Assembly: GCA_963995505.1 (NCBI GenBank)
Contig: OZ023181.1
Span: forward strand, 19,774,221-19,838,220
From: Hypericum androsaemum
Lineage: Eukaryota; Streptophyta; Magnoliopsida; Malpighiales; Hypericaceae
Direction of reading: 5' to 3'
DNA length: 64,000 nt
Shown: positions 16,365-64,000 of the stretch, one piece after another
Layout: every line of letters starts with the position of its first letter
Numbering within the stretch: position 1 is the stretch's first letter
The notes under the pieces: generated by a model
What the model saw: only the letters and a program-made list of their open reading frames with translations
Told to the model about the DNA's origin: nothing
The model's database searches: none
Position numbers and translations under genes: made by a program

Positions 16365-19300
16365 TTATGAAGGGTGGTGGCTCTTCGACTTCCGCAAAAC
16401 TTCCTTAAGAACTACAGCGACCCTCTGGGCCATGTGATGCTCCAGAAACATTTCTCTGACTTTTTCGTAGCCTCTCTTCCCCATTGTTATCCTCCTCTCT
16501 ACATGAGTTGCAAGTTTGACGATGTTTCTAGCCAGCGGAGTGGCCCCGTCTTTTCCAGCTGAATGCAGAAAGCCTGTGGTCCCGTTAACCACAATTTCGG
16601 TGGTGCCTCCAGCTGCTGTACCCTGTTAACAGGGTTTCACGGATACACAATTAGAACCAATTTCAAAGACTTGTAACAGTAACCATAGCTATTCAGATGG
16701 TTTCAGGTTGATAGATGCAAGAATAAGATCACAGGCCTCACCAGAACAGGCAACTGAAAGGCCATGGCTTCAATAGTTATCCTCCCAAAGCATTCTCCTC
16801 GTGCCTAAATGAGTAGACCCAAATTAGCCATTTTTCACGAAATGCCAACTTTTAACCCCTTTTTTTTTTGGGGAAAATATCTGAATAGCATGTGGGATGA
16901 AAAGGAAGAATGAACACCAGGAGACGGTGAATTTTCTAGAATGAGAGATTAAGCTATGTTAAGGTTTTTGTTTTTTTTTGCAATGATTAGGCCATGTTAA
17001 GTTGGCAAGGGTTCTATATAGACACACGAGGAGAGTACCTGTGAATTCTGAACCAGAACATCTATTGCAGCAAGATATGGAGCAACTGTCAGAGTTTTAT
17101 TCACAAAGTGGACACGATCTTGAATCCTCTTCTGGATCACAAAATTGCGCAATTCCGTCTCGAACTTGGTTTGAGCACTCATATCACTTCCCACCACCAC
17201 GGCATGCATTGAAGGCACCTGAAGCTTCTTCTCTTTGATCAGTTGCAAGCTCTCATAGAAAGCATGCAAGAACAAATCCTGACCTTTCCCCCGAGAAACG
17301 CCTGGAAACAGAAGAAATATAACGACCGATTCAGTCAACAAGACACTTTCACATCTTCCTACTGAAACCAGCTTTTAAACTTTTTGAAATCAGCTGTGCA
17401 AAATTGTAAAGGACAGCGTCTAAAGGGCATGGGGGAACCTAATGCTAACCAAGAATAAGTGAAAGTAAAGAGCATATTGAGGTTATTAAGCAACAAATCT
17501 ATCGCACACAAGCCACATAAGTTTTAACCCTATTCCACAACAGAAGTCAAAGGAAATGCCATTGAAATTTGCAAACGCATTGATCAATAAACGCATTGAT
17601 CAATAAACAATAGTGTGAGCTGCCTCAAAAATTATAAATTCCTACTGTTGATTATAGCAAAGAGAATATCCTCATCTCGCACTCCAAGAGATTCTCGAAT
17701 ATGTTCCCTTAAAACTCTTTTTGCGATGCTATCTTCAGCAACTTCCATGAGTTCCTTGCTATTTCCAAGGTGAACAACATAAGTTTCGGGCATCTTAATC
17801 CTGCCAAGTCAAAAATACACCAGTCACTACTTGGTATAGATGCGACCAAAACCAAATGGTGGAAACACAAAACTAAACCAAAACAGAAAACACATCACAA
17901 ATGCCACATAGTTTTGAAGCAAAATGTACAATAGCTACTCATGTCTAATAACAAGCAACTTCAGCAGGAAAACACATCACAAATGCCACATAGTTTTGAA
18001 GCAAAATGTACAATAGCTACTCATGGCTAATAACAAGCAACTTCAGCAGGAAATAGACTTGATAGAAATTGATAAATCAAAATTAATTCAAAGGCATTGT
18101 AAAGAACATAAAAAGACAGAACACGGCCCACAAAGAGAAGCAGAAGCAACCTCCTCCTAATCAACATACAAAAGATAAAGAAATTCCATGCAGGGTTTCG
18201 TGTTACATTTTATTGCATCTTTTTAAACAGAGCACAAAAATTAACTTGCATCAGTGACGAAAATACATTTTTTCCTGTCTCGTGCATCCTTGGGCCACAT
18301 AAAGACGTTATAATTCTCAGGCCCAAATTTGTTATCATAAAAATACGCTACTTTCTGAAGCATGTTTCTTATAAGAAAATTCAACGCATATCATCCAGCA
18401 AGAACATGTGTATGTTGCCACTTGTGAGTAATAGAAAGAAGCACAACAAGCGTATAAGTAGAAAACACAATATTACCTCAAGCGTTCTTGAGTCCTATTC
18501 TTCCAGTATTCTGCTGTAACGTGTGAATCAATCATGGCACCAGCAACTAAAGGAAGATGCTTTACATAATCTAATTTAAAGTAGTGTCCACGCATCTCAT
18601 GAATCCACCACAACACTTTAGGGAGAACCTCAGGCACATGTTCCCTGAGAACTGGATCCAACCACTTCCCAGCAACAGCAGTATTTAAGACAACAAGATC
18701 GGCTTTGAGGGCTCCATTAATTGCTTCTTGACCCTTAGCTGGAAGTACCTATAAGTAAACAAATAGATGACCAAAAGCTTCCAAAGGCAGACATGCATCA
18801 AGCAATTTTCAAACCCAGTCTATAATCAGTCAATTGAATTGAAGTCTCAACAAAGAAGGAAGAATTGAACAGCATCAATAGGGACTATGCACGGCTTCAT
18901 AACAACATCAACATAAAAGACAATGACATAGAACACAAGCAAAGACCTTTGGTATATAAAAATAACTAACATAATGTGAAATCAATGATTACCTGCACGC
19001 CACGGACCAACATCTTCTGCTCCAAACTGTAAATCACCTCCTCGGCTCCTGGTGGTTTCTGGATGGTAATCCAAAAAACTTCAGCACCAACTCCTCTCAA
19101 GAGAAATGCCAGCTCCATCAGTAATAATGGTCCACCTGCAGAAGTCGATTATGCACATGTTTTATCAGTAACTTTAAGACATGAAAGTGCATAAGTTGCA
19201 GATAAGATTTCTTTTTAAAAAAAAAGTTATATACATGAAACGGGAAGGAAATCAACTGAAGCAAATGAAGAAAGCAGCAACAAGTTGCAAAATGAATGCT

Positions 19301-29694: not shown

Positions 29695-30279
29695 ATGGGG
29701 CGGTGGCGGTTACTTTCAACGAATTTATCGCGAATCAAAAAAAACCTAAACCCTAATATTAAACCCTCAAATCCCGGCCGCCGGTTTACCGCCGGCGCGG
29801 AACAAGCCACAGCCACCTCTCCTCCTCCTCCTCCGCCGCCACAGCCGCCGGCGTCCGATATGGTTGCCTCGATTGTGGAGGACATGTCGGAGCTGACGCT
29901 TCTCGAAATGTCGGACTTAACGGAGGTGCTGAGGAACAAGCTGGGGGTCAAGGAGATGCCGATAATGGCGGTGATGATGCCGGGGATGGGGTTCAGCAGC
30001 GGGCTCAGGGGCGCCGGCGCCGGGAAGGGAGGGGCGGCCGCGGCAGGGTCCGGGAAGGAGGAGAAGGCGGTGTTCGATGTGAAGCTGGACGGGTTCGACG
30101 CGGCGGCGAAGATCAAGGTGATCAAGGAGGTGAGGGGGTTTACGGATCTGGGGCTGAAGGAGGCCAAGGATTTGGTGGAGAAGGCTCCTACTTTGTTGAA
30201 GAAAGGAGTTTCGAAGGAAGAAGCCGAGAAAATTATCGCTAAGATGAAGGAGATCGGGGCTAAGGTCTCTATGGAGTGA
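29695..30279 (+). CDS. Mitochondrial-type ribosomal protein bL12
   Basis: A single exon of 194 residues. The N-terminal ~50 residues are rich in Arg, Ser and Pro and lack acidic residues at the start, as in an organelle-targeting presequence. The dimerisation part ([19 protein letters not shown]) is followed by an Ala/Gly hinge and the conserved C-terminal domain ([37 protein letters not shown]). bL12 forms the flexible stalk of the large ribosomal subunit and recruits translation GTPases. The hinge and presequence suggest the mitochondrial rather than the plastid form, but this is an inference. The opposite-strand frame at 29580-30167 is a GC-rich shadow. Confidence 0.93.
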
Positions 30280-36039: not shown

Positions 36040-37929
36040 TTACACTTTATCGTCGTGAAACCACCACCTCGTCTCCTTTGGAGACCTGCCATTTTTACAA
36101 TTCCTTACATATCGATCATTGTCTTCGGGACGTTGCTGCAACAAGAGTTTCACAAACCAGTTTAATCATCCAGTACATTATCGACAACTATGTCCTAATT
36201 CTATCAAAGATTTTTAGTAGAACATAGATCAGTATTATACCTTGACAGTTGAGCTTGATAGCATTGAGAGAATGCTGATACAGACGGAACTCACAGTCAT
36301 GGCCGGAGACCATGAATCATATAATATGTCTGCACAAGAGGGCAATCAGAAACCATTCTCCCAATATAAAGTAATAAGAAAATGTAATATGACATTGTCA
36401 CATAGACGTACATAAAACCAGAAACACAAGATGTGCAAGAAGGTAAGCAACGAGTCCGAGTTAATACATTCCATTAGCATGCAAAACTTTGGTTTTATGC
36501 AAAAAGGAGAGAATTGAGTCTAGATTTGAGAACCATATCATAAAGACCTGACGGGAAGTCATACACAAGCAGAATGATAGATTCTGAGCATCAAACAAAT
36601 AACATATTCAAAAGCGCAAAGAACATTTGAAGTGCATAAAGACCCGACGGGAAGTCATACACAAGCAGAATGATAGATTCTGAGCATCAAACAAATAACA
36701 TGTTCAAAAGTGCAAAGAACATTTGAAGTGCATAAAGATTCTGGGAAAATCATCATATCAGTTCCCACCACTACTTTTCGGTCAGGCAATAGTTGTAAAT
36801 GGAAATGGCACATGGTAGTTCTCGTCTCCATTAATATGGTAAACATGCAGATAAGTACAGTGCATAAAGCCATATACAGGAAGAAATGTAAACCAAAGCA
36901 ACCTTGTTCACATCCTCTTTGTTTTACTATCAGTAATAGAAGATTTACTAGCTCAGAGCTTTTCATAAGTTGTAGCAATCTGTGAAACAAAAGTATCTGG
37001 AGGCTACATATTACTATGACATGCATAAATCCCACAATAGTCATGCAACCCAGAAGCCACAGAATGTAAGAATCACACAGACAAGATCAAAAGAAGAATG
37101 GGCCACAACAAGTGAAGATTTGGAAGACAACAAAAACACTGATAGTAAACAACTACCCAAACACAAATTGCAAGCCCGCGAAAAGAAAACGCCAACTCGA
37201 GATATAATTTACCTAAACAGATATGTCCATTGCTGTATATATGAGGATGCAGCGGGGCAGGATGGAGGAATATAACCTACAAGAGAACCACAATCAGTAG
37301 TTCTAAACACGGAAGAAACAACAATTACGAACATAACAAGGGCCAAAGGCCCGGTATCGGAATTAGACACAACCTGAGGTGCTTCCATTGGATAATGCTC
37401 AGGAAAATCAACCTGAAGCTGGAAGACCTCGTTGGAATAAAGAGTCCCAGGAGCCCCATTCACTTCAATCACCCACCTTCAGTTAAAAACCCCCAACACC
37501 AAACATATAACCAAGAAGAGATCAGACAGCCAATTCAAAGACCAAACAGCTTGAAGCTGAAAATTAAGCTCAAACCCAGAAAAACCCAAGAAGCAAAGAA
37601 CCCAAAACGAAACAAAAGACCGCTACTTTAAGAAAGGAAAAGGGTAAAGGAGGAACCTTTACCTCTGAAGATTATCGGTGACTTTGTGCTTGAAGCCGAC
37701 GGGAGGGTTGACCTGCCACTCCATGAGCTCCTTCTGGAGCCGGTTGCACGCGATCTTGCTCAGCGCCTGTAACAGCATTCCATCGTTACTAATCGGAAAA
37801 AACCCCCAAATTTTAACAGCCCATAAAAAAATCCAAACTTTACTTGAAAGGGATAGAGTTAAGGAAGGGCAAAATAGTGAGAAGAAGAGGAAGAGGCACC
37901 TTCCGGGCGGCGGCGGAGGAGCCGGACAT
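36040..37929 (-). CDS. Ubiquitin-conjugating enzyme E2, UBE2W/UBC16 class
   Basis: Six exons: 37929-37900, 37766-37663, 37476-37374, 37276-37213, 36329-36241, 36135-36040 (161 residues, the length of Arabidopsis UBC15-18). The UBC fold is complete: RLQKELMEWQVNPP, the FPEHYPMEAPQV core and the catalytic cysteine in SNGHICL (Cys99), followed by DILYDSWSPAMTV. The tripeptide at the usual HPN position is HPH, as in the animal UBE2W class that prefers protein N-termini. The product ends WWFHDDKV. The fourth intron (36330-37212) is long and contains a 96-bp tandem duplication. Confidence 0.95.
36540..36735. repeat. 96-bp tandem duplication in an E2 intron
   Basis: Two nearly identical copies start at about 36540 and 36636 (ATAAAGACC(T/C)GACGGGAAG). 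They differ at only a few bases. Confidence 0.88.
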
Positions 37930-43210: not shown

Positions 43211-45518
43211 ATGACGTCATCGTCTCTGTCGACTTTAACGGCGGCGCTGGTCAACCAGCCGCACCTCCTGCTCGCTAAGCTCCCACGCCGTTGCTGCTGC
43301 CGTTTTCTCTCCACCTCGACCGCCTTGCTCCCGTCAAGTAACCGCCACTCCAAGAGACGCTTCGGTTCCTCCTCCTTCCTCCACCACTCTTCTAGAACCT
43401 TCTCCTCTTCCCCCTCCCTCCGCGAGTTCCTCCCACGCGCCCTCGCCTCCACCTCACCCGCTCCCGAGTACGTCAATTCGTATTTTTCAAACAAAAAAGT
43501 TATGCTGTTATTGAATTTTTTTGTATTCTTTGGTTGTTTGTAGAATTGTGTTAGGGTTTGAGGCTCATCCCGATGGGGAAGCGACGACCCCCCGGGGCCG
43601 AATTTATCACGAGACCTACGGATGCCAGATGAACGTAAACGACATGGAGATTGTGCTCTCTATCATGAAGGATGCAGGGTTTAGTGAGACCGTTGATACC
43701 CCCGAGAGCGCGGAGATCATATTCATCAACACGTGCGCGATAAGGGACAATGCGGAGCAGAAAGTGTGGCAGAGGCTGAATTATTTCTGGTTCTTGAAGA
43801 GGCAATGGAAGAGCAATGTGGCAACTGGGAGGGCGCAGTCGTTTCGGGCTCCTAAGGTGGCGGTGCTGGGGTGTATGGCAGAGCGGTTGAAGGATAAGAT
43901 CCTCGATGCGGATAAGATGGTTGATGTGGTGTGTGGTCCTGATGCGTACAGGGATCTGCCTCGGTTGCTGGACGAGGTGGATGATGGTCATAAGGGGATT
44001 AATACGCTCCTTTCGCTCGAGGAGACTTATGCTGATATTAGTCCGGTCAGGATTGCTGAGAATTCTATTAGCGCTTTTGTGTCGATCATGAGGGGCTGCA
44101 ACAATATGTGCTCGTTTTGCATTGTCCCGTTTACTAGAGGTAGAGAGCGGTCGCGTCCCGTGGATTCAATTGTGAAGGAGGTTGGGGAGCTGTGGGAAGC
44201 GGGTGTCAAGGAGGTGACCCTGCTTGGCCAGAATGTGAATAGCTATAATGATTCGTCTAAGATTGAGGAGGTTGAGCCGGGAAGTAGCTGGGAATACAGT
44301 GAAGGCTTTTCCAGCATATCCAAGGTGAAAAAAATGGGTCTCCGCTTCTCTGACCTGTTGGATCGTCTTGCCACTGAATTTCCTGAGATGCGGTTCAGAT
44401 ACACGTCACCGCACCCCAAGGACTTCCCAGATGATTTATTGTATGTGATGCGGGATAGACATAATGTGTGCAATTATATCCATTTACCTGCACAGAGTGG
44501 GAACAGTGCTGTTCTTGAAAGAATGCGCCGCGGATACACTAGAGAGGCCTACTTGGAACTTGTACAAAAGATTAGGAGGATTGTTCCTGATATCGGGTTC
44601 AGCAGCGATTTTATCTGCGGTAAGACGCAATTCCTTCCTACATGTGTGGTTGTGGGCTTACATGTTGGCATTCAAGTGGATGCCAACCTAGTTTTTAGAC
44701 CGGATGATTTGGTCTGCAGATTTATGCTTACCTTTTCATTTTATTAAATGAAGATTTTACGCGTACCAACATAAGATGTTATGTTTATGAAGTTGGCGTT
44801 TCGGATTACCACGTACTAAGTTCTTATTTTTATGGCATGATGTTGTTGCTTTAGTTACATGTTACATGAAAATAATTTATTTTTAGTTCTTCTGGTTTGA
44901 CTTTGAGCTTCTTGCCTTCATATTGCCTTCATGTTGATATTTTACCTTAAGTCCCCTTAACCCATATGTGATTTGAGGCTTAAGTTCTAATATTTTGTAA
45001 CTATGTTGGCAGGTTTCTGTGGAGAAACGGAGGAGGAGCACCAAGATACACTTTCCCTCATCAGGACTGTCGGCTACGACATGGCGTACTTGTTTGCTTA
45101 TAGCATGAGGGAGAAAACTCATGCACATAGAAAGTATGTTGATGATGTCCCTGAAGAAGTCAAGCAGAGAAGGCTCTCAGAACTCATTGAGGCATTCCGA
45201 GAGAGCACAGGTCGATGTTTTGACTCTCAGATTGGAACCATCCAACTTGTGCTAGTCGAAGGGCCCAACAAGAGAGCTCCAGATGCTGAACTAATTGGCA
45301 AGAGTGATAGAGGACACAGAGTTTCCTTTGCCAAGAGGCCACTTCCTTGTCGGAGCGAGACTTGGGGCCAATCGAGGAGTCCTACGGTTGGTGATTATGT
45401 GGAAGTTCGTATAACGAAATCAACAAGAGCGTCGCTCTCTGGGGAAGCACTTGGTATTACCAAATTGAGCCTGTTTTGCAGCAACGTGGATCAAGAAGTT
45501 GCTGCCTGTGCTAGCTGA
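43211..45518 (+). CDS. CDK5RAP1-like tRNA methylthiotransferase, organelle-targeted
   Basis: Three exons: 43211-43467, 43544-44619, 45013-45518 (612 residues). The N-terminal ~85 residues are Ser/Arg-rich with no domain, consistent with a mitochondrial (or plastid) presequence. The MiaB-family N-terminal domain has its three cluster cysteines in YGCQMN (Cys113), NTCAIRDN (Cys150) and LGCMAER (Cys196). The radical-SAM motif CNNMCSFC is at 271-278, and the C-terminal ~65 residues fit a TRAM RNA-binding domain (VEGPNKR...GDYVEVRI). The family adds a methylthio group to isopentenyl-adenosine 37 of tRNA using two 4Fe-4S clusters. All catalytic cysteines are present. Confidence 0.94.
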
Positions 45519-46421: not shown

Positions 46422-47620
46422 TCATGAGAAAAACACCCCTGCTTGATTGAACAATGATAAGAGCTTTAGCAACTCTTCGATAAACAGCTTCGAAGGTCTT
46501 TTGTCTTCGAAGCTGTGATCGCTCAGAACTTGCACGACTTTCTCCTTGAAAACATTCGCATCCACCTCCGAGCAAGAACATGAACGACTATCATCCATAT
46601 CGTTTTCCATTTCATCATCCTCGGCAGATTCATATTCGTCATTGCCAGCACCGTGCTCGTTTCTAGAACCTGAAAGCTTCGACAATCTCAGTAACTCCAC
46701 CACCTTCTTCTTCTGCTTAAACGTGGCTCCCAGAGTCTTATTCTTATTACTAAAACACGTCCTTGTGAAAGCCCGCCATTCGTCCAGGTTTACGCTGGGG
46801 ATTTCAGCTTTGGGACGGACAATTACCACGGAAGAGTCGACCTTAGGACAAGGTAGAAAGTCTCTTCTGCTCACATCCATGACAAGCTCCACATCCGCCA
46901 CTAGCTTCACATTGACAGCCAGCCTATTAAATTGTGAATCACCAGGCTCAGCTAACAGCCTCCGCGCAAACTCCTTCTGCAACAGGAGCGTCGCACTTCG
47001 AAACGAGCATGATCCATACACCAACTTCGTCACCAGAGGCGACGAGATCTTGTACGGAATATTCGCAACCACAAGATCAAACCGCGGGAGCTCAGCCTTC
47101 AACACATCCCCGCAAATGACCTGCAAGAAAGTCGCGTAAAATATAACAAACTCCTTCTCACTGACGCATTTCGTCGAACAGGTAGACTGCTAAAATTTAC
47201 ACTGAGTTTGTCTTGGAACCCGCGATCCGCCACCCGCCTGCGAAGAACCTCCACCATCCGGCCATCGAGTTCCACGGCGAAGACCTTGCTAGCGGCCTCG
47301 AGAAGCCTCAGGGTCAGGTTGCCGGTGCCCGGGCCGATCTCGAGGACAGTGTCGTCGGGCCTTATATCCGACCTACGAACAATGTTATCGAGGACGCGCG
47401 GGTTGGTGAGGAGGTGCTGGCCCTTGCTCTTGTGTAACCGGAAGTCGAAATCCCTGTCCTGCTGCCCTCCTTCCCTTCGGGTTGGGCTCCTGTCGTCTTG
47501 TCTTCGGTCGTTTCCGTGGCGAGAAGGTTTAGTGCGAAGCTCGCGGAGAATGGTCTGGATGACGCGGAACGGGCTAGGTCTCGGACAGGAACCTAGTCGG
47601 CTTTTCAACGGTATAACCAT
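46422..47620 (-). CDS. DIM1B: Mitochondrial DIM1/KsgA-type rRNA adenine dimethyltransferase
   Basis: Two exons, 47620-47201 and 47120-46422 (372 residues). An Arg-rich N-terminal ~60 residues suggest organelle targeting. The methyltransferase core follows: KGQHLLTNP, SAM-binding motif I LEIGPGTGN (about 93-101), the acidic VFAVELDGRM, and catalytic motif IV NIPY (160-163). The C-terminal domain has an acidic insertion rich in Asp/Glu/Ser and ends in the helical KLFIEELLKLL region. The family dimethylates two adjacent adenines in the 3' hairpin of small-subunit rRNA; the Arabidopsis counterpart (At5g66360) acts in mitochondria. A truncated Copia element begins only about 85 bp upstream of the start codon. 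Confidence 0.93.
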
Positions 47621-51872: not shown

Positions 51873-54364
51873 TGTTATGAATTCGGCAACTAGAGAATAA
51901 AATGCGCAAATAACACAGACACAAGAGATAACGTGGTTCGGCCTAGTGTCTACATCCATGGTGAGAAAGCAGAAATTTTATTGATAGATCCGAGTCACAA
52001 AGCTATACAAAACCTTAGGGTAACATGTCTTTATATAGAGGCAAACCCTTGTACATCAAGTAAGCTATCTATGTCAAATTAGGAGTCCAAAACCTTGTCC
52101 GAATAGAATAGAAAATAAGCCCACAAATCGTTTCCTCTTTAATTTCTCGACATCTCTAACAATCTCCACCTTGGCGAGAAATCATCCTATAGATGAACCA
52201 TGAAGCTCCATCCGAACTTCAACAAACTCCACCTTGATAAAATACCGCCACATGAAGAACCATGAGAACTTGAGAAACTAAACCGACTCTACTAGCTCCA
52301 CCTTGACCATAGATACACCGCCATCAATAATACCATCTCAATTTTCTCACCACCTTTTTCCGTTCAATCACATGGAGTCAGCCCTCAAACTCGAGCTTCT
52401 GAGCTTGCTTGGCCCATTCCCTCCAATCTCCATTGAACCCCAACTAGTAAGTCCACCTGTTGAAGCAACCTTGCGACCAATAGACGCGTCCTCTATTTTT
52501 TGGTCAACCCCATGCTCCACAACCTCGAACTGCTTCTCCGCTGGACCTTCTTGCCTCATACCAATACTACATGCCATAGTATACAAAGGGCAACCTTTGT
52601 TCTACTAAGTAGAACCCTCGACATGCCACGAACTCCACCGTTCGGCCTTGAGTGAGATACCTAATTCGTCCGTGGTGCTACCAATGGCTTCACATTCCCC
52701 ATGCAAAACCTACCCAATATCTTTGGCATGCACGTCTCTTTAGACAACCATAGCGAAAACTTGCTAACTTTATCTCTGCAAATCCCAACTCCACTCAAAC
52801 CATTCATGTCAAGCTTTCGCACCATCACACAAGAACTTTTCTCCCCTCTATCGAAACCCAACGATGTGACTCCACCTACAATCGTGTTCCCTACTAACCT
52901 GTAGGTATTCCTAGCATTCATTTCACCTTTCATCACCACCACAGCATCCTTCTCTACCTCTATTAGCCCGCCTACAATATTATAGTTGTACCTACTATAA
53001 TCCAAGGCTCCTAACGAGATCAAATTTCTCTCCAACTTCGGAACATGCCTAACCCCATATAATTTTCTCTCAACACCATCCCACATCTTGATTTAGATAT
53101 CACCTATGCCAGCAATTCTGTAAGTAGAACCATCACCCATAGTCACCATACCTGAATCAACGAACTTGTAGGTGTCGAACTACCCTCTCTTGGGCGTCAT
53201 GTGAAAAGAGCAAGCGCTATCCAAAATCTAAGAATCAGAATGCTTTGGACTTGACAAAACAGAAAAAAGATCACCATCTGACCCGTCCGAATGTGAGGCC
53301 ACATTCACGGAACCTGATCCTTTTTCCTCGCGATCCCGAGTTCTTTTTGGAGAATCCTTCTTCACGTGCCTTTTTTCTCCGCACTCAAAGCAATTTTCCT
53401 TGAACCTCCTTGACCACGACTTTGATCTCTTCCCGTCTTTTGCCCCACTACGATCACCATGGCTACCCCTCACAACCAACCCTTCCGCTTGTTCATCGCC
53501 AGTTTTCTTTCTTTGATGAAACCCTAGCAGAGCACTTGTGATATCTTCCAACACCAGGGACTTCTTCCCCTAAGTTAGAGTTGTAACCAAATTTTCGTGG
53601 GAGCCAGGTAAAGAATTCAGCAGCAACAATGCCTTGTCTTCTTCCTCGAACTTCACATCAATCTTTCTCAAGTCGCTCATAAGTTGACTGAAACTATTAA
53701 TGTGTTTGCTCAAATCCGAGCCCTCCTTCATCTTGAGCCAGTACAATCTTTGCTTAAGATAAAGCTTGTTTGACAAAGACTTAGACATATACCTTACCTC
53801 CAATTTCTTCCATACCTCAGCTGGTGACTCCTCATCCATGATGGGACACATCACATCATCCGCCAAGCACAAGCAAATTGTCGCCACCGCCTTGGCCGCC
53901 ATCTCCTTCCACTCTTGCTCCTCCATCTTCTCGGGCTTCTTCTCCGAGAGCTCGATGACCATCCCTTGTTGCACGAGGAGATCCTTGACACGCCTTTGCC
54001 ATAACCCAAAATTCGAAGATCCATCGAACTTCACAAGAGCAAACTTCGCACCGTCCGTCATCCTCCAACCCAAGCTCTTGATACCAATTGTTATAAATTC
54101 AGCAACTAGAGAAGAATATGGACACAAGAGATAACATGGTTCGGCCTAGTGCCTACGTACACAGTGAGAAAGGAGAAATTTTATTGATGGATCTGAGTCA
54201 CAAAGCTATACAAAACCTTAGGGTAACATGCCTTTATATAGAGGCAAACCCTTGTACATCAAGTAAGCTATCTAGGTCAAATTAGGAGTCCAAAATCTAG
54301 TCAGAATAGAATAGAAAACAAGCCCACAAATCATTTCCTCTTTAATTTTTTGACATCTCTAACA
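51873..54364 (-). mobile_element. Complete non-autonomous Copia derivative (TR-GAG-like)
   Basis: 2492 bp flanked by a perfect 5-bp duplication AAGTA (51868-51872 and 54365-54369). On its own (minus) strand the 5' LTR is 54364-54089, the primer-binding site TGGTATCAAGAGC is at 54086-54074, the gag/protease region runs to about 52661, degenerate RT-end sequence follows, and the 3' LTR is 52161-51873. The LTRs are near-identical over most of their length but differ by small indels and substitutions. Integrase, most of RT and RNase H are absent, so mobility would depend on a full-length relative. Confidence 0.88.
52661..54061 (-). pseudogene. gag-protease reading frame of the Copia derivative
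   Basis: Read on the minus strand: a Copia gag start (KFALVKFDGSSNFGLWQ), helical gag (YMSKSLSNKLYLKQRLYWL) and an in-frame stop at 53572-53570, then a basic region and a zinc knuckle CFECGEKRHVKKDSPK whose last cysteine is replaced by serine. After another stop come protease-like ILDSACSFHMTP and YGVRHVPKLERNLISLG. Several stops break the frame. The tail at about 52790-52680 (LWLSKETC...KILGRFCMGN) resembles the end of Copia reverse transcriptase, joined directly to the protease side by an internal deletion. Confidence 0.78.
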
Positions 54365-54369
54365 AAGTA

Positions 54370-57515: not shown

Positions 57516-57574
<59 letters not shown>
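57516..57574. repeat. (TA)n microsatellite at the pararetrovirus junction
   Basis: A 59-bp uninterrupted TA/AT run. Viral leader-like sequence starts immediately after it. Several endogenous Caulimoviridae in plants are known to sit in TA dinucleotide repeats. Confidence 0.9.
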
Positions 57575-57579
<5 letters not shown>

Positions 57580-57692
57580 GTCAGAGTCAGTCGAACCGGC
57601 GATTGCACATAGTAGAGCCCGTCGGCACGCACCCCCTACCACTGTAAGCTCTCTCTATCCTCACCCTCTCTTACCGGCCTCTCACCCCCTAT

Positions 57693-57704
57693 TGGTATCA
57701 GAGC
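57693..57704 (+). other. tRNA-Met primer-binding site of the pararetrovirus
   Basis: TGGTATCAGAGC, followed by CA, is complementary to the 3' end of plant initiator tRNA-Met. It is the minus-strand DNA primer site in Caulimoviridae and lies 118 bp after the (TA)n junction and 270 bp before ORF1. Confidence 0.85.
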
Positions 57705-57756
57705 CAGTAACGATTTTCGAGGTTAAAAAAACAAGACAGGCTCGGTTAAGGTAGCC

Positions 57757-57801
57757 ATGCTAGGCATAAATCCTCATTACACTGAGAACCCGCTTGTGTG
57801 A
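57757..57801 (+). other. Small upstream ORF in the viral leader
   Basis: ATG at 57757 followed by a stop at 57799-57801 gives 14 codons. A second minimal ATG-TTC-TAA lies at 57888-57896. Short leader ORFs before an ATG-poor region are typical of pararetroviruses that use ribosome shunting. No peptide function is claimed. Confidence 0.45.
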
Positions 57802-57973
57802 AACCAAGATTATCTGTATCGGTTGTGATTCTAATTTGGGATTAGCTGTTTATTAGTACTGTTTGTGTACTTTGTCTATTTACTTTTATGTTCTAAATTA
57901 TCTTTACAAATAAGGCTTGTTATTCCTAAGGGGAAGCTAGAACTGGACTAACTGGGAAAACTATTCACCATAA

Positions 57974-58573
57974 TTGACATCACCTCTACCCTTGAGCACA
58001 ATTTACAAAATTGCGACGAGTAAAAAATATCTGGCCTACTTAGATTTAGAACTTGGCTCCAGAGAAAAATCAAAAATAATATTAGAAGGACACGAGTTAA
58101 TTTGTCGTCTTGATAGAACTTTTGAACACAAGTTACACAGTAATAATAATCATCTCAATAGTTTAACAGATCTAATAATTAGTCTAGGAAGTCACTTAGA
58201 AGTCGAAAGGAAACTAACTATTAAAAATCATCATAACTTGACAGAAGCACTTACGGGAGTAGAAGGATTGTTAAAAGTCTCGGTAGAAAATCAAAATTAT
58301 ATTAAAAATCAGAACGAACAGATTATCTTAGAAATTAAAAAATTAAGTACACTTATAGAAAGGCCTAAAAGAAACGAGGTAGAACTAAAACCAGTCTTAG
58401 GCGAATTAGAAAAGCTAGCAGAAAATATCAAAAGACTAAAAGAAGAAAATCACGCTAAGGTAGAAATCAACGGTCTAACAAAAGCCTTAGAAAAACTAAG
58501 CTTAGGACAGGGTGAAAGACCCAGAAAAGAGATCCTTCCTCCAAAGTATATTCATTGGTTACCTAAAAAATGA
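57974..58573 (+). CDS. Pararetrovirus ORF1, ATG-free, coiled-coil protein
   Basis: The frame opens after a TAA at 57971-57973 and runs 200 codons including the stop, with no ATG in frame; the first codon available is TTG (57974). It must use a non-AUG start, as reported for ORF1 of rice tungro bacilliform virus (AUU). The length is close to that virus's P1. The middle is rich in Leu, Ile, Lys, Glu and Asn in helix- and coiled-coil-like spacing (about residues 60-175), and the C-terminus is basic and proline-containing. Badna/tungro P1 proteins are thought to be virion-associated; the function here is inferred only from position. The TGA stop overlaps the polyprotein's ATG as ATGA. Confidence 0.8.
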   Translation: MTSPLPLSTIYKIATSKKYLAYLDLELGSREKSKIILEGHELICRLDRTFEHKLHSNNNHLNSLTDLIISLGSHLEVERKLTIKNHHNLTEALTGVEGLLKVSVENQNYIKNQNEQIILEIKKLSTLIERPKRNEVELKPVLGELEKLAENIKRLKEENHAKVEINGLTKALEKLSLGQGERPRKEILPPKYIHWLPKK

Positions 58574-61500
58574 CAACGCCATTCCCTGGAAGACCTTATA
58601 GAACTGGGACTATAACAGAACCAGCTAGAAATAGTGTAAGTGATAATATCTCAACAGATTCATTTTTGGGAAGACTGCTTAGAGGATCAGGAAGTAATAG
58701 TACACAGGATGTAGTTCAGTTAGAAGAAGAAATAGATGTCGAACGAAACCTGGAACTATATAATAATGCCCAGGTAGATGCTTTAAATCCTAGAATTTTA
58801 TATCAGACAGGACTCCTTAATGTGCGAACGGTACTAGTAAGAAGTAATAGAGAAGAAAGCCTAAGAATTGTGGATAATACAGAAGAAATAGAACTATTTA
58901 CACCAGAAACTCTAAAACGTTTAAAATAGTCAGGAAAACGCTTTGTACACATAGGGTTAATTGTCATAGGTATTAAAGGGTTAGGAAGAAAAGAATTAGG
59001 AACGAAAGCTTTAGTGTTAATTCTAGATAAATCTTGGCAGACCGATTTAAAAAAAGCAATAATAGCAGGAATGGAAGTAGATATGAGTAAAAATAGTGCT
59101 CTGTTTTACTGTTCACCTGCAGTATTAAAAGATATTAAAGATTTAAAAAATTTAAAAATAGGACTGAAAACAAGAGGGTATGAAAATTTTATAGGTAATA
59201 ACCTTGTAATAAGCATAGGAATACTAGGAAAAGCAAGTAATAGGTCCGGAATGAAATTCAAAGTAAACATAGAAGGTATAGTACAGAATCTAGCAAGTAA
59301 AGGGGTTAAAATGATAGATCCCGTTAAAATTGATCCAGAAGAATTAGCCGGATTAGAATGGTCTTTAAATGAATTTTCAGGACCAGGAAATAGAATTATG
59401 GTTCCCGAAAGAAGTATATTGTATGAAAATACAGATGGATCCTATGGTTTAAGATTTAATAATTACAAGGGAAAAGAAGTAAAAGAAGATCATGAGAATA
59501 TAGACAGTGATGAAGAAACAAATTTAATGAATTTCGAATTTATAAACGAAGACGAACCATTAGGAGACCCTATCTATGATACAGAAAACGAACAAGAAAT
59601 ACTAGATCTAGAAGAAACAATAGGTTATAGCTATTACGAAGAAGATGATGACTTAGATGATAACTCAGAAGGAATAAACCTAGAAGAAACTGCAGGATTT
59701 AAAACAGAGGAGGTATGTATAGACATAAATCAAATAATAAATAGAAAATTTACTGAACTAAACATACAAGATCAAGTAGATGATATGTTAATAGAATGTA
59801 TGACAGGATTAGGAATGAGCTATGAAGACGCTTATAACAAGCTAAGCGAATATTTTAATTTACCACTTGTCACAGATATTATAAATGGTAAAAGCTTGCT
59901 TAGTGATTTTTATAAACCAGAAGCAAACTATATGGACCAAACAATGGTGCCAGTTGATAGAGGCACTAAGAGACCAAAACCAGAATTTATAACTCCAGGA
60001 ACATCTGGAACAGAAAGATCAGGAAGAGAACCCTGGCTTCCACCATCTATTACATATCAAGGAGAATCTAATCTTAGAGGTCGAGGATCTAGAATGCCAA
60101 TTGGACGATTATATAGTTCTGACATGTTACTAGTAGAACAGCAACATCCACAGTTATGGCCAGACGAAGTCCTGGTATGGGAACAAACAGTAGTCAGAAA
60201 TTGGGAAACTAATAAACGATCAGATATAGATATGTTCTCTTATTTAGAAACAACCTTAGGACCAACAGCGTTAGGATTTTGGCAAAGCAAAAAGGCTAAA
60301 AATCCAGAAAAAATTAATACATTAAAATCATTAGGAGATAATCCTTATAACTTTACGAGTCAGATCAGGATTTTATTATTAGGAGTTGACCCGGCAAAAG
60401 AAAATACATTTATACAAGATACGTCAGTTAGGAACTTAGAACAATTAAGTATAACAGACTTTAAGTATATCAAAGAATTTAGCTCCGACTTTGCTAGATT
60501 ACTAGCACAAACTGGACGAGCTATGGATGATAATTTGTGTAATAGATATTTTGTAAAATTACCAGGAGACTTAGGAAGATCTATACATGAAGATTGGGTA
60601 GCTGACTATGGCTTAACAGAAGGATTAGGTGTAGGACCACGAATAACCTACGTATTCAATAAATTAGAGGAAAAGTGTAAAGAAGCAACTATGCAAGAAC
60701 AAATTCGAAGGCAAGCTTGGGCTTTCTGTAAAACAGCAGTTTATACGCCACAAGCATACGGATATTATGATAGAGCTAAAAGTAAGAAAAAATATCTTAG
60801 GAAAAGTACGTCATATAGAAAAGATAAACCATGGAAAAATAAAGAAAAGTACGTAAAGAAAAAACCCAAGACTAGGAAGTGTACCTATTTTATTTGCGGA
60901 GATCCAGATCACCTAGCAAATAAATGCCCTAACAAGGCAAAAAATGCGGAAAGATCTAACTTAGTAGAACAGTTAGACGAATATGAAATACAAAGTATTA
61001 AAACCAACGATTCTGATAACTCTGTTTATAGTATAACCAGTGAGTCAGACAAAGAAAACCCTCCTAAAATAACATATACGTATATGAATACAGAGGAAAA
61101 TGAATGTCCCCACGAATGGATTAGAAATAGAGGAAATAATCATATAAGCTGCTATATCTGTAAATTATATCCGGCAATAGATAGACGTTATCAATGTAAT
61201 TACTGCTTTAAAGAAATCTGCTTTCTATGCATAAAAAAGATCTATAAAATAGAAACAGATTTAACAGGACGAATAAAAGAATTAACCAAAGATAACAACT
61301 TTAACTTTTATACTGAAAGAATTGAAAAACATGAATTAGAAATTGAACTCATTAAACAGAGATTAAGAAAACTAGAAATAGAAAGGGATATGGGGAAACA
61401 TAAAGAAGGTATTAACGAAATTATTGAAGAAAATCACATGGCCGAACAGGTAGCAGAAGAAGAAGCATTTATAATCGGTGACTGTATAGCTAGTCTAATA

Positions 61501-63492
61501 ACCTTGAAATGTAGAGTGTGGTTATAAGATAATAAATTCCTCGATTTAACAGCCATTTTAGATACAGGAAGTACGAAGAGTTTAATAGGATACAGTATGG
61601 TTCCTAAGCAATACCATACACCACTAAAATACAATATCACCACTCGAACAGTAGAAAATAGATTACTAACGTTAACCCATTGTTTAGAATCCACTGGCAT
61701 TCAATTTTTAGATTTTGCAGGTAATTATAGTACTAAATATGACCTTCCACAGGTAAATATTGCCCCTGAAGGCACTCGTAGTAAAGAGTTTTTACTAGGC
61801 ATTAACTTTCTTTGTAGCCTCAATGGAAGTCTTACTATAGCTCGTAACTGCATTACCATTAGTAAACATGTTTATACCTTTCCAACTAATAAATATATTC
61901 AAACATCAGAGTTCGCGCGCAAGCGTGGTGGACATTCCCACTTAGATTTTTTAACAACAAAAACAAATGTACAGTCAAGTAATATAGAAAATGAAGCTTA
62001 TCAGATGTTAGGAAAAATGTTGTCACAAGATTTAGAAAAAGGACCAGATATAAAGAGTAGCATAAACTACCCTAAAATTCAGAAATTAGAAAAATTAGGA
62101 TTAATAGGGGATGATATAACAAAATCTAGAGTAAAATTTTTAGCAAAAATGAAAATCAAAAACCCTGATATCCGAATAGTAACTGCAAATATCGATTATA
62201 ACCCCCTAGATAGGGACGAATTTAGGAATCAAATCCCCGAAATGCTTAGACAAAATTTAATTCGAAGGTCAGAAAGTCCACATAGAACAGCGGCTTTCAT
62301 AGTCAGAAACCATAGTGAAATCAAACGAGGGAAGGCTAGAATAGTATATAATTATAAAAGGTTAAACGATAATACGATAGATGATGCGTATAATATTCCA
62401 AACAAAGATAATCTTATAGGATTAATTCAGAATAAAAAGATATTTAGTAAATTCGATCTAAAATCAGGATACAATCAGCTACAATTAGAAGAATGGTTTA
62501 AACCATGGACAGCTTTCACATGTCCAGAAGGACATTTTGAATGGAATGTCCTTAGTTTTGGCTTAAAAAATGCACCCGCAGTTTTTCAAAGGTTTATGGA
62601 TAGTATTTTTCTAAAATACGCCTTTTGCCTAGTATATATTGACGATATCCTCATAGCCAGTAACTCGGTTACTGAACATGAACAACATTTAGCTATAATT
62701 TTTGAAGAAGTAGTAAAACAAGGGATAGTATTAAGTAAGAAGAAAATGGAATTATTTAAAAGAAAAATCTCCTTTTTGGGCTTAGAAATAGGAAACGGTA
62801 AAATAGAATTACAACAACATATAGCCGAAAAAATTCTTAGTTTTCCGGATAAATTAGAAGGTCTGAAACAAATACAAGCTTTCTTAGGAATCATGAATTA
62901 TGCAAGAAAATTTATTCCAAATCTTAGTAAATTAACAGGGCCTTTATACAGTAAAACGTCCAAAAATGGTCAAAGAAATTTCAATAAAGAGGACATAGAA
63001 TTAGTTAAGAAAATCAAACAAGAGGTTCGAAAGATAAAACCCTTAGAATTACCTCTTACCACGGATTATATTATTATAGAATGTGATGGAAGTAAAGAAG
63101 GATGGGGAGCAGTAATGATCTGCAAACCACATAAATATGCAGACAAAGATACGGAAAGAATAGCAGCATACGCTAGTGGTAATTTTAATAAAGCCGGTAT
63201 GAACTGGACCAGCCTAGATTTTGAGATACAGGCATTAATAAACGCATTAGACAAGTTCAAATTATATATAAATAAGGAATTTACAGTAAGAACGGATTGC
63301 GAAGCTATAGTTAAGTTTTTAAAAAATGAAAATAGCAAAAAGATAAATCGAACTAGATGGATTAACTTACAAAACTTAATACAAGGCAGTGGTTATTCCA
63401 TAGAATTTGAGCATATTAAAGGGAAAAATAATAGTCTCGCAGATTTATTATCCAGAAGCATTAATAAATTTTTTAATAATGCAGGAAAATAA
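58570..63492 (+). pseudogene. Pararetrovirus polyprotein (movement, coat, protease, RT, RNase H), two in-frame stops
   Basis: One reading frame of about 1640 codons with stops at 58927-58929 (TAG) and 61525-61527 (TAA). In order: an N-terminal arm; a 30K-type movement region starting near 58939 (VHIGLIVIGIKG; IAGMEVDMS; LKTRGYENF); an acidic linker; the coat region (WPDEVLVWEQ near 60155; AFCKTAVYTPQAY near 60720); a CCHC finger at 60880-60927 with Tyr at an expected Cys (60886-60888); the second cysteine motif at 61150-61230; an aspartic protease with DTGS at 61561-61572; RT with YIDD at 62635-62646; and RNase H starting ECDGS near 63080 and ending DLLSR. Both stops precede the protease and RT, so a full-length product is not expected from this copy. 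Confidence 0.9.
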
Positions 63493-63493
63493 G

Positions 63494-64000
63494 ATGAAGA
63501 AACGAGTTATTAAGCCTAAGGGTAAAGAGAAAATGGAAGGCGAAGGGCCAAGTACCCAAAGCCCCATTACTCCACAGACTCCACAGAAAAAAGAAGAGCC
63601 AAGTATACAGACCATACAAACAGAAGCAGCTGGTCCCCCAGCTAACATTATATACAGAAACAATTTGGCAATGCCAGTTTATATAGAAGGAAATGCAAGT
63701 GGTGCTTCAGCGCCCTCTGCGAATCCAACCTTTTCACAGCATAAACAGATTAAATTCGGAACAATTTCCTTTGCCGAATTCCAAGATATAGGGAATAAAA
63801 AATTTAGACCCTTCCCAGGGTTATCTATAGACAGGTCACAACAATGTCTTCTCGACAACCTGTGGCATATACAGACAGCAGGAGCTGCTACTAACTTTAA
63901 AGTACAGTGCTTAAATGCCCTTAGTATGTATTTTTCAGAAAATACTCCTAAGACCTATAAAAAGAAGTTTACTCATTATGTAATATATAGAGGTCTAAAA
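63494..64000 (+). CDS. Pararetrovirus downstream ORF (ORF4 position), partial
   Basis: The ATG begins one base after the polyprotein stop (TAA G ATG), and 169 codons stay open to the window edge. The N-terminal ~55 residues are basic then Pro/Thr/Gln-rich; the rest looks like a folded domain (IKFGTISFAEF; FRPFPGLSIDRSQQ; AATNFKVQCLNALSMYF). I do not recognise the family. Among well-known relatives, rice tungro bacilliform virus has a fourth ORF in this position, expressed from a spliced RNA; whether the two proteins are related cannot be judged here. Codon and base use match the polyprotein, so it belongs to the virus. Confidence 0.75.
   Translation, partial: MKKRVIKPKGKEKMEGEGPSTQSPITPQTPQKKEEPSIQTIQTEAAGPPANIIYRNNLAMPVYIEGNASGASAPSANPTFSQHKQIKFGTISFAEFQDIGNKKFRPFPGLSIDRSQQCLLDNLWHIQTAGAATNFKVQCLNALSMYFSENTPKTYKKKFTHYVIYRGLK

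What the first reader, a model, noticed from the sequence alone, without database searches (positions are those of the whole stretch)
57575..64000. Nearly intact endogenous pararetrovirus with an unusual gene layout
The sequence shows ORF1 directly joined to the polyprotein (ATGA overlap) and a further ORF one base after it. Typical badnaviruses have two small ORFs before the polyprotein and none in this downstream position; rice tungro bacilliform virus has both a second small ORF and a fourth ORF. This copy has neither arrangement, while its CX2CX11CX2CX4CX2C motif is badna/tungro-like. It may represent an undescribed or purely endogenous lineage.
Basis: partly seen in the sequence, partly recalled or inferred. 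Interest (0 to 1): 0.88.

Follow-up and report, generated by a model that had tools for sequence, protein, structure and literature searches.

The report
Endogenous tungrovirus-sister virus with transactivator
A plant chromosome carries a decayed but complete-length copy of an unnamed DNA virus related to rice tungro virus, and its last gene looks like a translation helper that rice tungro virus was thought not to have.

Summary
The observation largely holds. At 57574 a caulimovirid genome begins inside a (TA)n tract. It runs past the window to 65767 (read from the same chromosome): 8,078 bp plus a 116/117-bp terminal repeat ending beside the Met-tRNA primer site. Order: ORF1 (no ATG), ATGA overlap, MP-CP-AP-RT-RH polyprotein, then, one base on, ORF4. 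This copy is dead: two stops in the polyprotein, one in ORF4. Other copies share the layout; 10 of 10 readable ones have no extra ORF. The three-gene order without ORF2 is not new: it was described for Orendovirus (Kunii 2004), and the one-base gap to a transactivator ORF for Dioscovirus. The RT-RNase H, with one sunflower and two unnamed database relatives, forms a clade sister to Tungrovirus and outside it, Orendovirus and Dioscovirus (AU tests). RT identity is 81-82% inside the clade and at most 62% to the 24 other proteins compared. ORF4 carries a TAV (Cauli_VI) domain. Fold searches, from low-confidence models, group it with TAVs and, more weakly, tungrovirus P46. The leader shows a ribosome-shunt stem and ORF1 is ATG-free, so RTBV-type leaky scanning coexists with a TAV. 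Probably a new genus-level lineage of a known kind.

The parts
57516..57573 (.). (TA)n tract at the left junction of the insertion (a second (TA)n tract follows the right end at window-equivalent 65768)
   Evidence: sequence
57574..57690 (+). 5' copy (117 bp) of the terminal direct repeat; 3' copy (116 bp) at L009:2753-2868 (window-equivalent 65652-65767); 115 of 117 alignment columns identical (1 substitution, 1 indel)
57693..57705 (+). Met-tRNA primer binding site TGGTATCAGAGCC, 2 nt after the terminal repeat
   Evidence: site identity by comparison with literature
57757..57801 (+). upstream short ORF in the leader (14 codons)
57888..57896 (+). upstream short ORF in the leader (2 codons)
57930..57961 (+). 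3' arm of the predicted shunt stem; 5' arm pairs from L009:2689, 8 nt after the stop of the first uORF (L009:2669-2680)
   Evidence: duplex -35.0 kcal/mol against a mean of -19.0 in 500 mononucleotide shuffles, 0 of 500 as low; arm found in 7 of 20 fetched pieces, 5 identical and 2 with one change
57974..58573 (+). ORF1, 199 codons, no ATG in any frame from 57889 to 58569; probable non-AUG start; only chance-level Pfam matches (best E 0.067)
58570..63492 (+). polyprotein frame (about 1,640 codons) opening at ATGA; two in-frame stops in this copy, ending at 58929 and 61527
58939..59178 (+). movement protein region (weak, PF01107 E 0.0041, below cut-off)
60412..60753 (+). coat protein conserved domain PF22909 (E 3.4e-28)
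61150..61230 (+). CX2CX11CX2CX4CX2C motif
61549..61836 (+). aspartic protease PF21024 (E 6e-29)
62326..62790 (+). reverse transcriptase PF00078 (E 4.2e-34)
63064..63354 (+). RNase H PF17917 (E 5e-16)
63494..64000 (+). ORF4, 5' part (an ATG in the same frame also at 63479); continues to window-equivalent 65311 with one in-frame stop near 64514; Cauli_VI (TAV) domain 22.8 bits, cut-off 21

Best explanation
This is a complete-length, inactivated insertion of a caulimovirid from an unnamed, probably genus-level lineage that is sister to Tungrovirus. Shown: the anatomy, the phylogenetic place among the proteins at hand, the shared layout in other copies, the terminal repeat, the (TA)n junctions and the TAV-type domain of ORF4. 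Inferred: the free virus made a terminally redundant pregenomic RNA from the TATA box downstream of ORF4. Ribosomes translated the first short uORF, shunted over the leader stem, started some ORF1 at a non-AUG codon, and otherwise scanned through the ATG-free ORF1 to the polyprotein ATG. ORF4 acted as a TAV/viroplasmin-like factor, translated by reinitiation, from its own RNA or from a spliced RNA. The copy entered the chromosome by repair of a break in a (TA)n tract, from DNA with an end at the Met-tRNA gap. The repeat at its 5' end does not include the TATA region, so this copy should not make a pregenomic RNA from its own promoter.
For: Domains: (Cauli_VI matched by 8 of 8 aligned ORF4 proteins, the window's and 7 relatives, at E up to 1; P0191 is below the cut-off). 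Tree and AU tests. RT-only identity 81-82% to the three clade members and at most 61.5% to the other 24 proteins compared. Layout in other copies. Leader stem with a uORF ending 8 nt before it; a review gives 7 and 8 nt for the RTBV/RTSV case (PMC5902531, passages). ATG depletion of ORF1: 0 seen; 3.7 expected by dinucleotide shuffle (P 0.013) and 5.9 by codon shuffle (P 0.0012); each of 44 overlapping polyprotein windows of that size holds at least 7. Terminal repeat and period 8,078; same-strand C1 copies 8,017, 8,075 and 8,074 apart and one head-to-tail junction read there. 6 of 30 leader loci end at the primer site and pass into (TA)n. Purifying selection among 9 RT stretches, dN/dS about 0.25 by simple counting.
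Against: Host and virus have no names here, so identity with a published RT cluster such as 'Tungrovirus-01' of PMC9794742 cannot be excluded. Both ORF4 models are of low confidence (mean pLDDT 48.6 and 49.1), and neither tungrovirus P46 hit recurs in the other model's listed 50. The movement-protein match is below its cut-off. ORF1 homology to tungrovirus P24 was not tested. One readable copy has an ATG in ORF1, and three carry a stop or frameshift in it, as decaying copies would. No expression data. The uORF-stem pairing was computed from two separate pieces, not on one RNA.
Confidence: 0.85

Rival explanations
1. A divergent member of Tungrovirus itself, or of the 'Tungrovirus-like' dicot RT clusters already listed in print, not a separate genus-level lineage.
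For: Sister to RTBV + Agapanthus tungrovirus at 100/100. PMC9794742 lists five Tungrovirus RT clusters, among them Prunus-Vitis, Malus, Citrus, Lindenbergia and Cinnamomum (passages).
Against: Nesting with RTBV to the exclusion of Agapanthus tungrovirus is rejected (AU p 9e-5). RT-only identity 55-60% to the four tungrovirus proteins, below the 62% clustering threshold of PMC13308828. No ORF2, and ORF4 has a Cauli_VI domain.
Confidence: 0.3
2. An Orendovirus (endogenous RTBV-like virus), since it has the same three-gene order.
For: Kunii 2004: region x without ATG, ORF y, ORF z, no ORF2, AT-repeat flanks (PMC526188, passages).
Against: RT outside the Orendovirus-like clade, AU p 0.0018. ORF z is 819-822 bp, ORF4 here about 1.8 kb. 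Orendovirus is reported as monocot-only (PMC5766536) and without a TAV recognisable by BLAST (PMC5902531).
Confidence: 0.05
3. A copy that lost ORF2 by deletion, or an LTR retrotransposon misread as a virus.
For: The terminal repeats beside a Met-tRNA site look like short LTRs.
Against: 10 of 10 readable copies and an uninterrupted relative lack an ORF between ORF1 and the polyprotein or start the polyprotein at the same place. The element carries a caulimovirid coat domain and a TAV-type domain, and no integrase family was among the Pfam matches. Head-to-tail copies share the unit length.
Confidence: 0.02

Closest known systems
Tungrovirus (RTBV, Agapanthus tungrovirus)
   Same: RT-RH sister clade; MP-CP-AP-RT-RH polyprotein whose N-terminus aligns; Cys motif; RTBV has an ORF4 downstream, an ORF1 without AUG, and leaky scanning was shown for it (PMC5902531, passages)
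   Different: no ORF2 here; ORF4 has a Cauli_VI domain and is about 600 aa; RT-only identity 55-60%
Orendovirus (endogenous RTBV-like, Kunii 2004)
   Same: gene order ORF1-like region without ATG, polyprotein, third ORF; no ORF2; AT-repeat flanks, junctions concentrated in the intergenic region
   Different: RT in a separate clade (59% RT identity); third ORF about 0.82 kb; no TAV recognised in print
Dioscovirus (DNUaV)
   Same: polyprotein followed after one nucleotide by a TAV-domain ORF4; ATGA at the end of ORF1; BFVD fold search ranks DNUaV ORF4 first for one ORF4 relative
   Different: has ORF2; RT-RH 51% identical and placed next to badnaviruses; shared clade rejected
Badnavirus
   Same: polyprotein domains and Cys motif; leaky scanning predicted in print
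   Different: has ORF2, no TAV (literature); RT-only identity 46-47% for the three compared
Caulimovirus/Soymovirus TAV (P6)
   Same: Cauli_VI domain in ORF4
   Different: in print those viruses lack an MP-CP-RT polyprotein ORF (PMC5902531)

Membership tests
Caulimoviridae | caulimovirid RT-RNase H, protease and coat domains, no integrase | tested here: met
Caulimoviridae | 30K movement protein | tested here: inconclusive
   PF01107 E 0.0041, below cut-off; collinear with a relative for which PF01107 is precomputed (P0136)
Caulimoviridae | genome 7.1-9.8 kb with Met-tRNA primer site | tested here: met
   period 8,078 bp, primer site at 57693; range
Tungrovirus | RT inside the RTBV/Agapanthus clade | tested here: not met
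   sister, not inside; AU p 9e-5 for nesting with RTBV
Tungrovirus | four ORFs including ORF2 | tested here: not met
   no ORF2 in the window or in 10 of 10 readable copies
Tungrovirus | P46-type ORF4 | tested here: inconclusive
   each of two fold searches lists one tungrovirus P46 among TAV-type hits, a different one each time; low-confidence models; no P46 sequence at hand
Orendovirus | three-ORF order without ORF2 | tested here: met
Orendovirus | RT inside the Orendovirus clade | tested here: not met
   AU p 0.0018; clade named by inference from rice and Triticum entries
Dioscovirus | TAV-domain ORF one nucleotide after the polyprotein | tested here: met
Dioscovirus | RT with DNUaV | tested here: not met
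   AU p 0.00015
Dioscovirus | ORF2 present | tested here: not met
Badnavirus | three ORFs with ORF2 and no TAV | tested here: not met
Yendovirus and other endogenous OTUs | RT clusters with their named sequences | not testable with these tools
   no sequences under those names were among the proteins returned; supplements have a cap of zero
TAV/viroplasmin | Cauli_VI domain over cut-off | tested here: met
   22.8 bits against 21
TAV/viroplasmin | transactivation of reinitiation | not testable with these tools
   needs an assay

The most novel reading that the evidence does not exclude
Tungrovirus P46, called unique in print, is a diverged TAV/viroplasmin, and this lineage is the intermediate: same place after the polyprotein, sister RT, but with the Cauli_VI domain still recognisable. 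TAV would then be ancestral to the tungro/badna/diosco/orendo group, lost in badnaviruses and altered in tungroviruses, and leaky scanning and TAV would once have worked together.
Probability: 0.5. Interest if true: 0.65.

Novelty: new variant of a known kind. Interest (0 to 1): 0.5.

Why it matters
A 2018 review splits plant pararetroviruses into two groups: those with a TAV and no MP-CP-RT polyprotein, and those with such a polyprotein and no TAV; for Tungrovirus, Orendovirus, Badnavirus and one more it draws leaky scanning (PMC5902531, passages). Dioscovirus already blurred that line; this lineage does so beside Tungrovirus itself and suggests where the tungrovirus protein P46 came from. 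It also adds to the tungrovirus side a lineage with a relative in sunflower, and shows viral ends at the Met-tRNA gap joined to (TA)n tracts.

Tried and rejected
Three viral-contig scans with P0004, P0136 and P0191 found no relative. The first tree used a bad Ty3 outgroup (a 115-residue piece) and was rebuilt without it. The AU test left the window's own kin out of the held group and is uninformative; one search replaces it. The two ORF4 structure models are of low confidence, and the TM-scores of their caulimovirid hits (at most 0.29) mean little; only the ranking of hits is used. The idea that 58570-58929 is ORF2 was rejected. The Cys motif was rejected as a marker of badna/tungro. LTR retrotransposon rejected. 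The terminal-repeat age (one substitution in about 117 sites: 0.3 to 0.6 My at the recalled rates 1.3e-8 and 7e-9) is too imprecise to lean on. In one search a length filter hid two pieces that span the ORF1/polyprotein junction (L041, L042) and one inverted piece (L029); one search read them, so 10 of 20 pieces span it; the other 10 do not align across it. In one search, 8 of 19 RT pieces aligned over nearly their whole length and in the expected orientation; only these were counted. The 57 tree rows were picked by hand from the 183 proteins listed.

Full report
1. What is there. The window lies at C2:19774221-19838220 of an unnamed 385-Mb genome in 29 contigs. At 57574, directly after a (TA)n tract, a stretch begins that recurs 8,078 bp later: 57574-57690 (117 bp) and L009:2753-2868 (116 bp; window-equivalent 65652-65767) agree in 115 of 117 alignment columns, and the second copy runs straight into another (TA)n tract. 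Two bases after the first copy stands the Met-tRNA site TGGTATCAGAGCC (57693). The insertion is therefore one viral genome length plus a terminal redundancy.

2. Genes. ORF1 (57974-58573, 199 codons) has only chance-level Pfam matches (best E 0.067) and no ATG. At 58570, ATGA opens the polyprotein frame, which ends at 63492 and has two in-frame stops in this copy. Coat, protease, RT and RNase H domains are clear; the movement protein match is weak. One base on, ATG 63494 opens ORF4 (an ATG of the same frame also at 63479). Beyond the window ORF4 continues, with one in-frame stop, to window-equivalent 65311. The two parts align in order with an uninterrupted 600-aa relative (P0191), at 53% and 59%. 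Its Cauli_VI match exceeds the curated cut-off, 22.8 bits against 21. All 8 aligned ORF4 proteins (this one and the 7 relatives) match that model at E up to 1; P0191 itself, 16.2 bits, is below cut-off. A TATA box lies at L009:2601.

3. Is 58570-58929 an ORF2? No. It aligns at 61% with residues 8-119 of P0136, an uninterrupted 1,624-aa protein of a JGI metagenome contig, whose next residues continue with the following piece of the window. It also aligns with the N-termini of RTBV P194 (E 4e-7), Agapanthus tungrovirus P194 (E 3e-10) and, weakly, DNUaV ORF3 (E 3e-5) in pairwise BLAST; the two Orendovirus-like proteins tried gave no such match. The stop at 58929 is absent from 9 of 9 other copies readable there and the one at 61527 from 8 of 8. 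In the 1.5-kb RT stretch, 4 of those 8 copies have a stop of their own elsewhere and 4 have none.

4. Other copies. An ORF4 piece finds 108 matches in the genome (lower bound); 53, the window's own included, cover all 112 residues at 95% identity or more, and 15 of these lie in open frames of 570-635 aa (counted by hand; one 1,072-aa frame and one 635-aa frame with an inside stop left out). On C1, same-strand copies lie 8,017, 8,075 and 8,074 bp apart, and one head-to-tail junction there was read. Of 20 fetched ORF1 pieces, 10 can be read across the ORF1/polyprotein junction and all 10 keep ATGA without an inserted ORF; the other 10 do not align across it. Eight of the ten hold the whole of ORF1; it has no ATG in 7 of these 8, but two are frameshifted, one has a stop and one has a small deletion at its start. 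Of 15 ORF4 loci, 12 (the window's own among them) hold the polyprotein/ORF4 junction and all 12 keep stop, one base, ATG. dN/dS over 9 RT stretches is about 0.25 by simple counting over all pairs: the copies descend mostly from replicating virus, not from drift of one dead copy.

5. Place in the family. RT-RH identities: 76-78% to P0008 (Helianthus annuus), P0136 and P0137; 57% to RTBV, 55% to Agapanthus tungrovirus, 51% to DNUaV, about 42-46% to the named badnaviruses, 45% to CaMV. RT alone: 81-82% to the first three and at most 61.5% to the other 24 compared; the 2026 survey clusters genera at 62% (PMC13308828, outline and half of the results). In a 57-row tree the window and its three relatives form a clade (100/96) sister to Tungrovirus (100/100). 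Forcing them together with Dioscovirus-like, Orendovirus-like or RTBV rows is rejected (p 0.00015, 0.0018, 9e-5). 'Orendovirus-like' is my label for the rice/Triticum group. Sequences named Yendovirus or Tungrovirus-01 to -05 were not among the hits, so the lineage may already exist in print as an RT cluster.

6. How it probably worked. The first uORF (ATG, two codons, stop) ends 8 nt before a stem arm that pairs with 57930-57961, just upstream of ORF1 (-35.0 kcal/mol; 500 mononucleotide shuffles average -19.0, none as low). The downstream arm was found in 7 of 20 fetched pieces, identical in 5 and with one change in 2. ORF1 lacks ATG in all frames (0 seen; 3.7 expected by dinucleotide shuffle, P 0.013; 5.9 by codon shuffle, P 0.0012). 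This is the shunt plus leaky-scanning arrangement shown experimentally for RTBV (PMC5902531, passages), and shunt leaders are found in nearly all genera, so the leader does not place the virus. ORF4 adds a TAV-type protein. How it was translated (own RNA, splicing as for RTBV P4, or reinitiation) is open.

7. ORF4 and P46. Two AlphaFold models, of the ORF4 relatives P0191 and P0195, are poor (mean pLDDT 48.6 and 49.1). Yet in BFVD the first nine hits of the first are eight caulimovirid TAV, ORF VI, inclusion-body or P46 proteins and one unnamed entry, with RTBV P46 fifth (E 5.8e-3, prob 0.51). For the second, DNUaV ORF4 is first (E 4.4e-10), TAVs follow, and Agapanthus tungrovirus p46 is twelfth (E 1.6e-3, prob 0.95), above the first entry with prob under 0.1 (rank 14). 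Against: neither P46 appears among the 50 hits listed for the other model, nor DNUaV ORF4 among those of the first. The review says P4 is unique to Tungrovirus, perhaps with Orendovirus. I read this as a lead that P46 is a diverged TAV, not as proof.

8. Integration. The leader query gave 40 matches (40 of 111 candidates scored) and 30 loci. Of these 30, 6 end at the primer site (query positions 117-127) and continue in (TA)n runs: L066, L067, L073, L077, L078 (this copy's right end) and L093; three others break at 114-116 and do not pass directly into (TA)n. The query was chosen at that place, so the frequency of breaks elsewhere was not compared. AT-repeat flanks are already known for florendoviruses (PMC4241990, passages) and for endogenous RTBV-like elements, whose junctions also cluster in the intergenic region and at a discontinuity (PMC526188, passages). 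The model of linear DNA opened at the tRNA gap and captured in break repair is in line with print, and inferred here.

9. Layout in print. Orendovirus: ORF1-like region without ATG, polyprotein, third ORF, no ORF2. DNUaV: ORF4 with TAV one nucleotide after ORF3, but with ORF2 (PMC6135502, first two of four parts). ICTV profile (PMC7660458, whole text): dioscoviruses and tungroviruses four ORFs. PMC5766536 was seen in parts 1-3 of 5; PMC9794742 and PMC2714080 in passages. So the order itself is not new; the combination of that order, a TAV-type ORF4 and a tungrovirus-sister RT did not appear in the listings or in the passages read. That library holds open-licence papers only, and supplements were not readable.

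Noticed in passing
proteins P0128, P0129, P0146, P0177: Caulimovirid RT proteins whose precomputed Pfam domains include a dUTPase (PF00692); P0128 also has Cauli_VI and sits in the clade next to the Orendovirus-like rows.
   Followed up: partly
G000:C1:22284916-22301525 and 22362541-22379149: Two blocks of ORF4 copies offset by about 77,624 bp with matching spacing: looks like a segmental duplication that carries tandem viral copies.
   Followed up: no
G000:C2:21908982-21972864: 13 ORF4 matches within 64 kb: a dense cluster of copies on the window's own chromosome.
   Followed up: no
G000:C8:8336184-8336519: One ORF4 copy lies in a 1,072-aa open frame, longer than ORF4; not examined.
   Followed up: no
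window 51909-52162 and 54112-54365: 254-bp direct repeat, 91% alike, flanking an ORF (53570-54127, minus strand) that looks by eye like a Copia gag: perhaps a truncated LTR element.
   Followed up: no
window 29695-30279; 43521-45518; 46422-47620: By eye, host genes: ribosomal protein L12-like, a MiaB-like methylthiotransferase, and an rRNA adenine dimethyltransferase (minus strand). No database search was made.
   Followed up: no
window 17886-18049 and 36539-36730: Two short tandem duplications, 82 bp (99%) and 96 bp (97%).
   Followed up: no
window about 60889-60933: The CCHC zinc knuckle kept in the relatives P0136 and P0137 does not match the CX2CX4HX4C pattern in this copy.
   Followed up: partly
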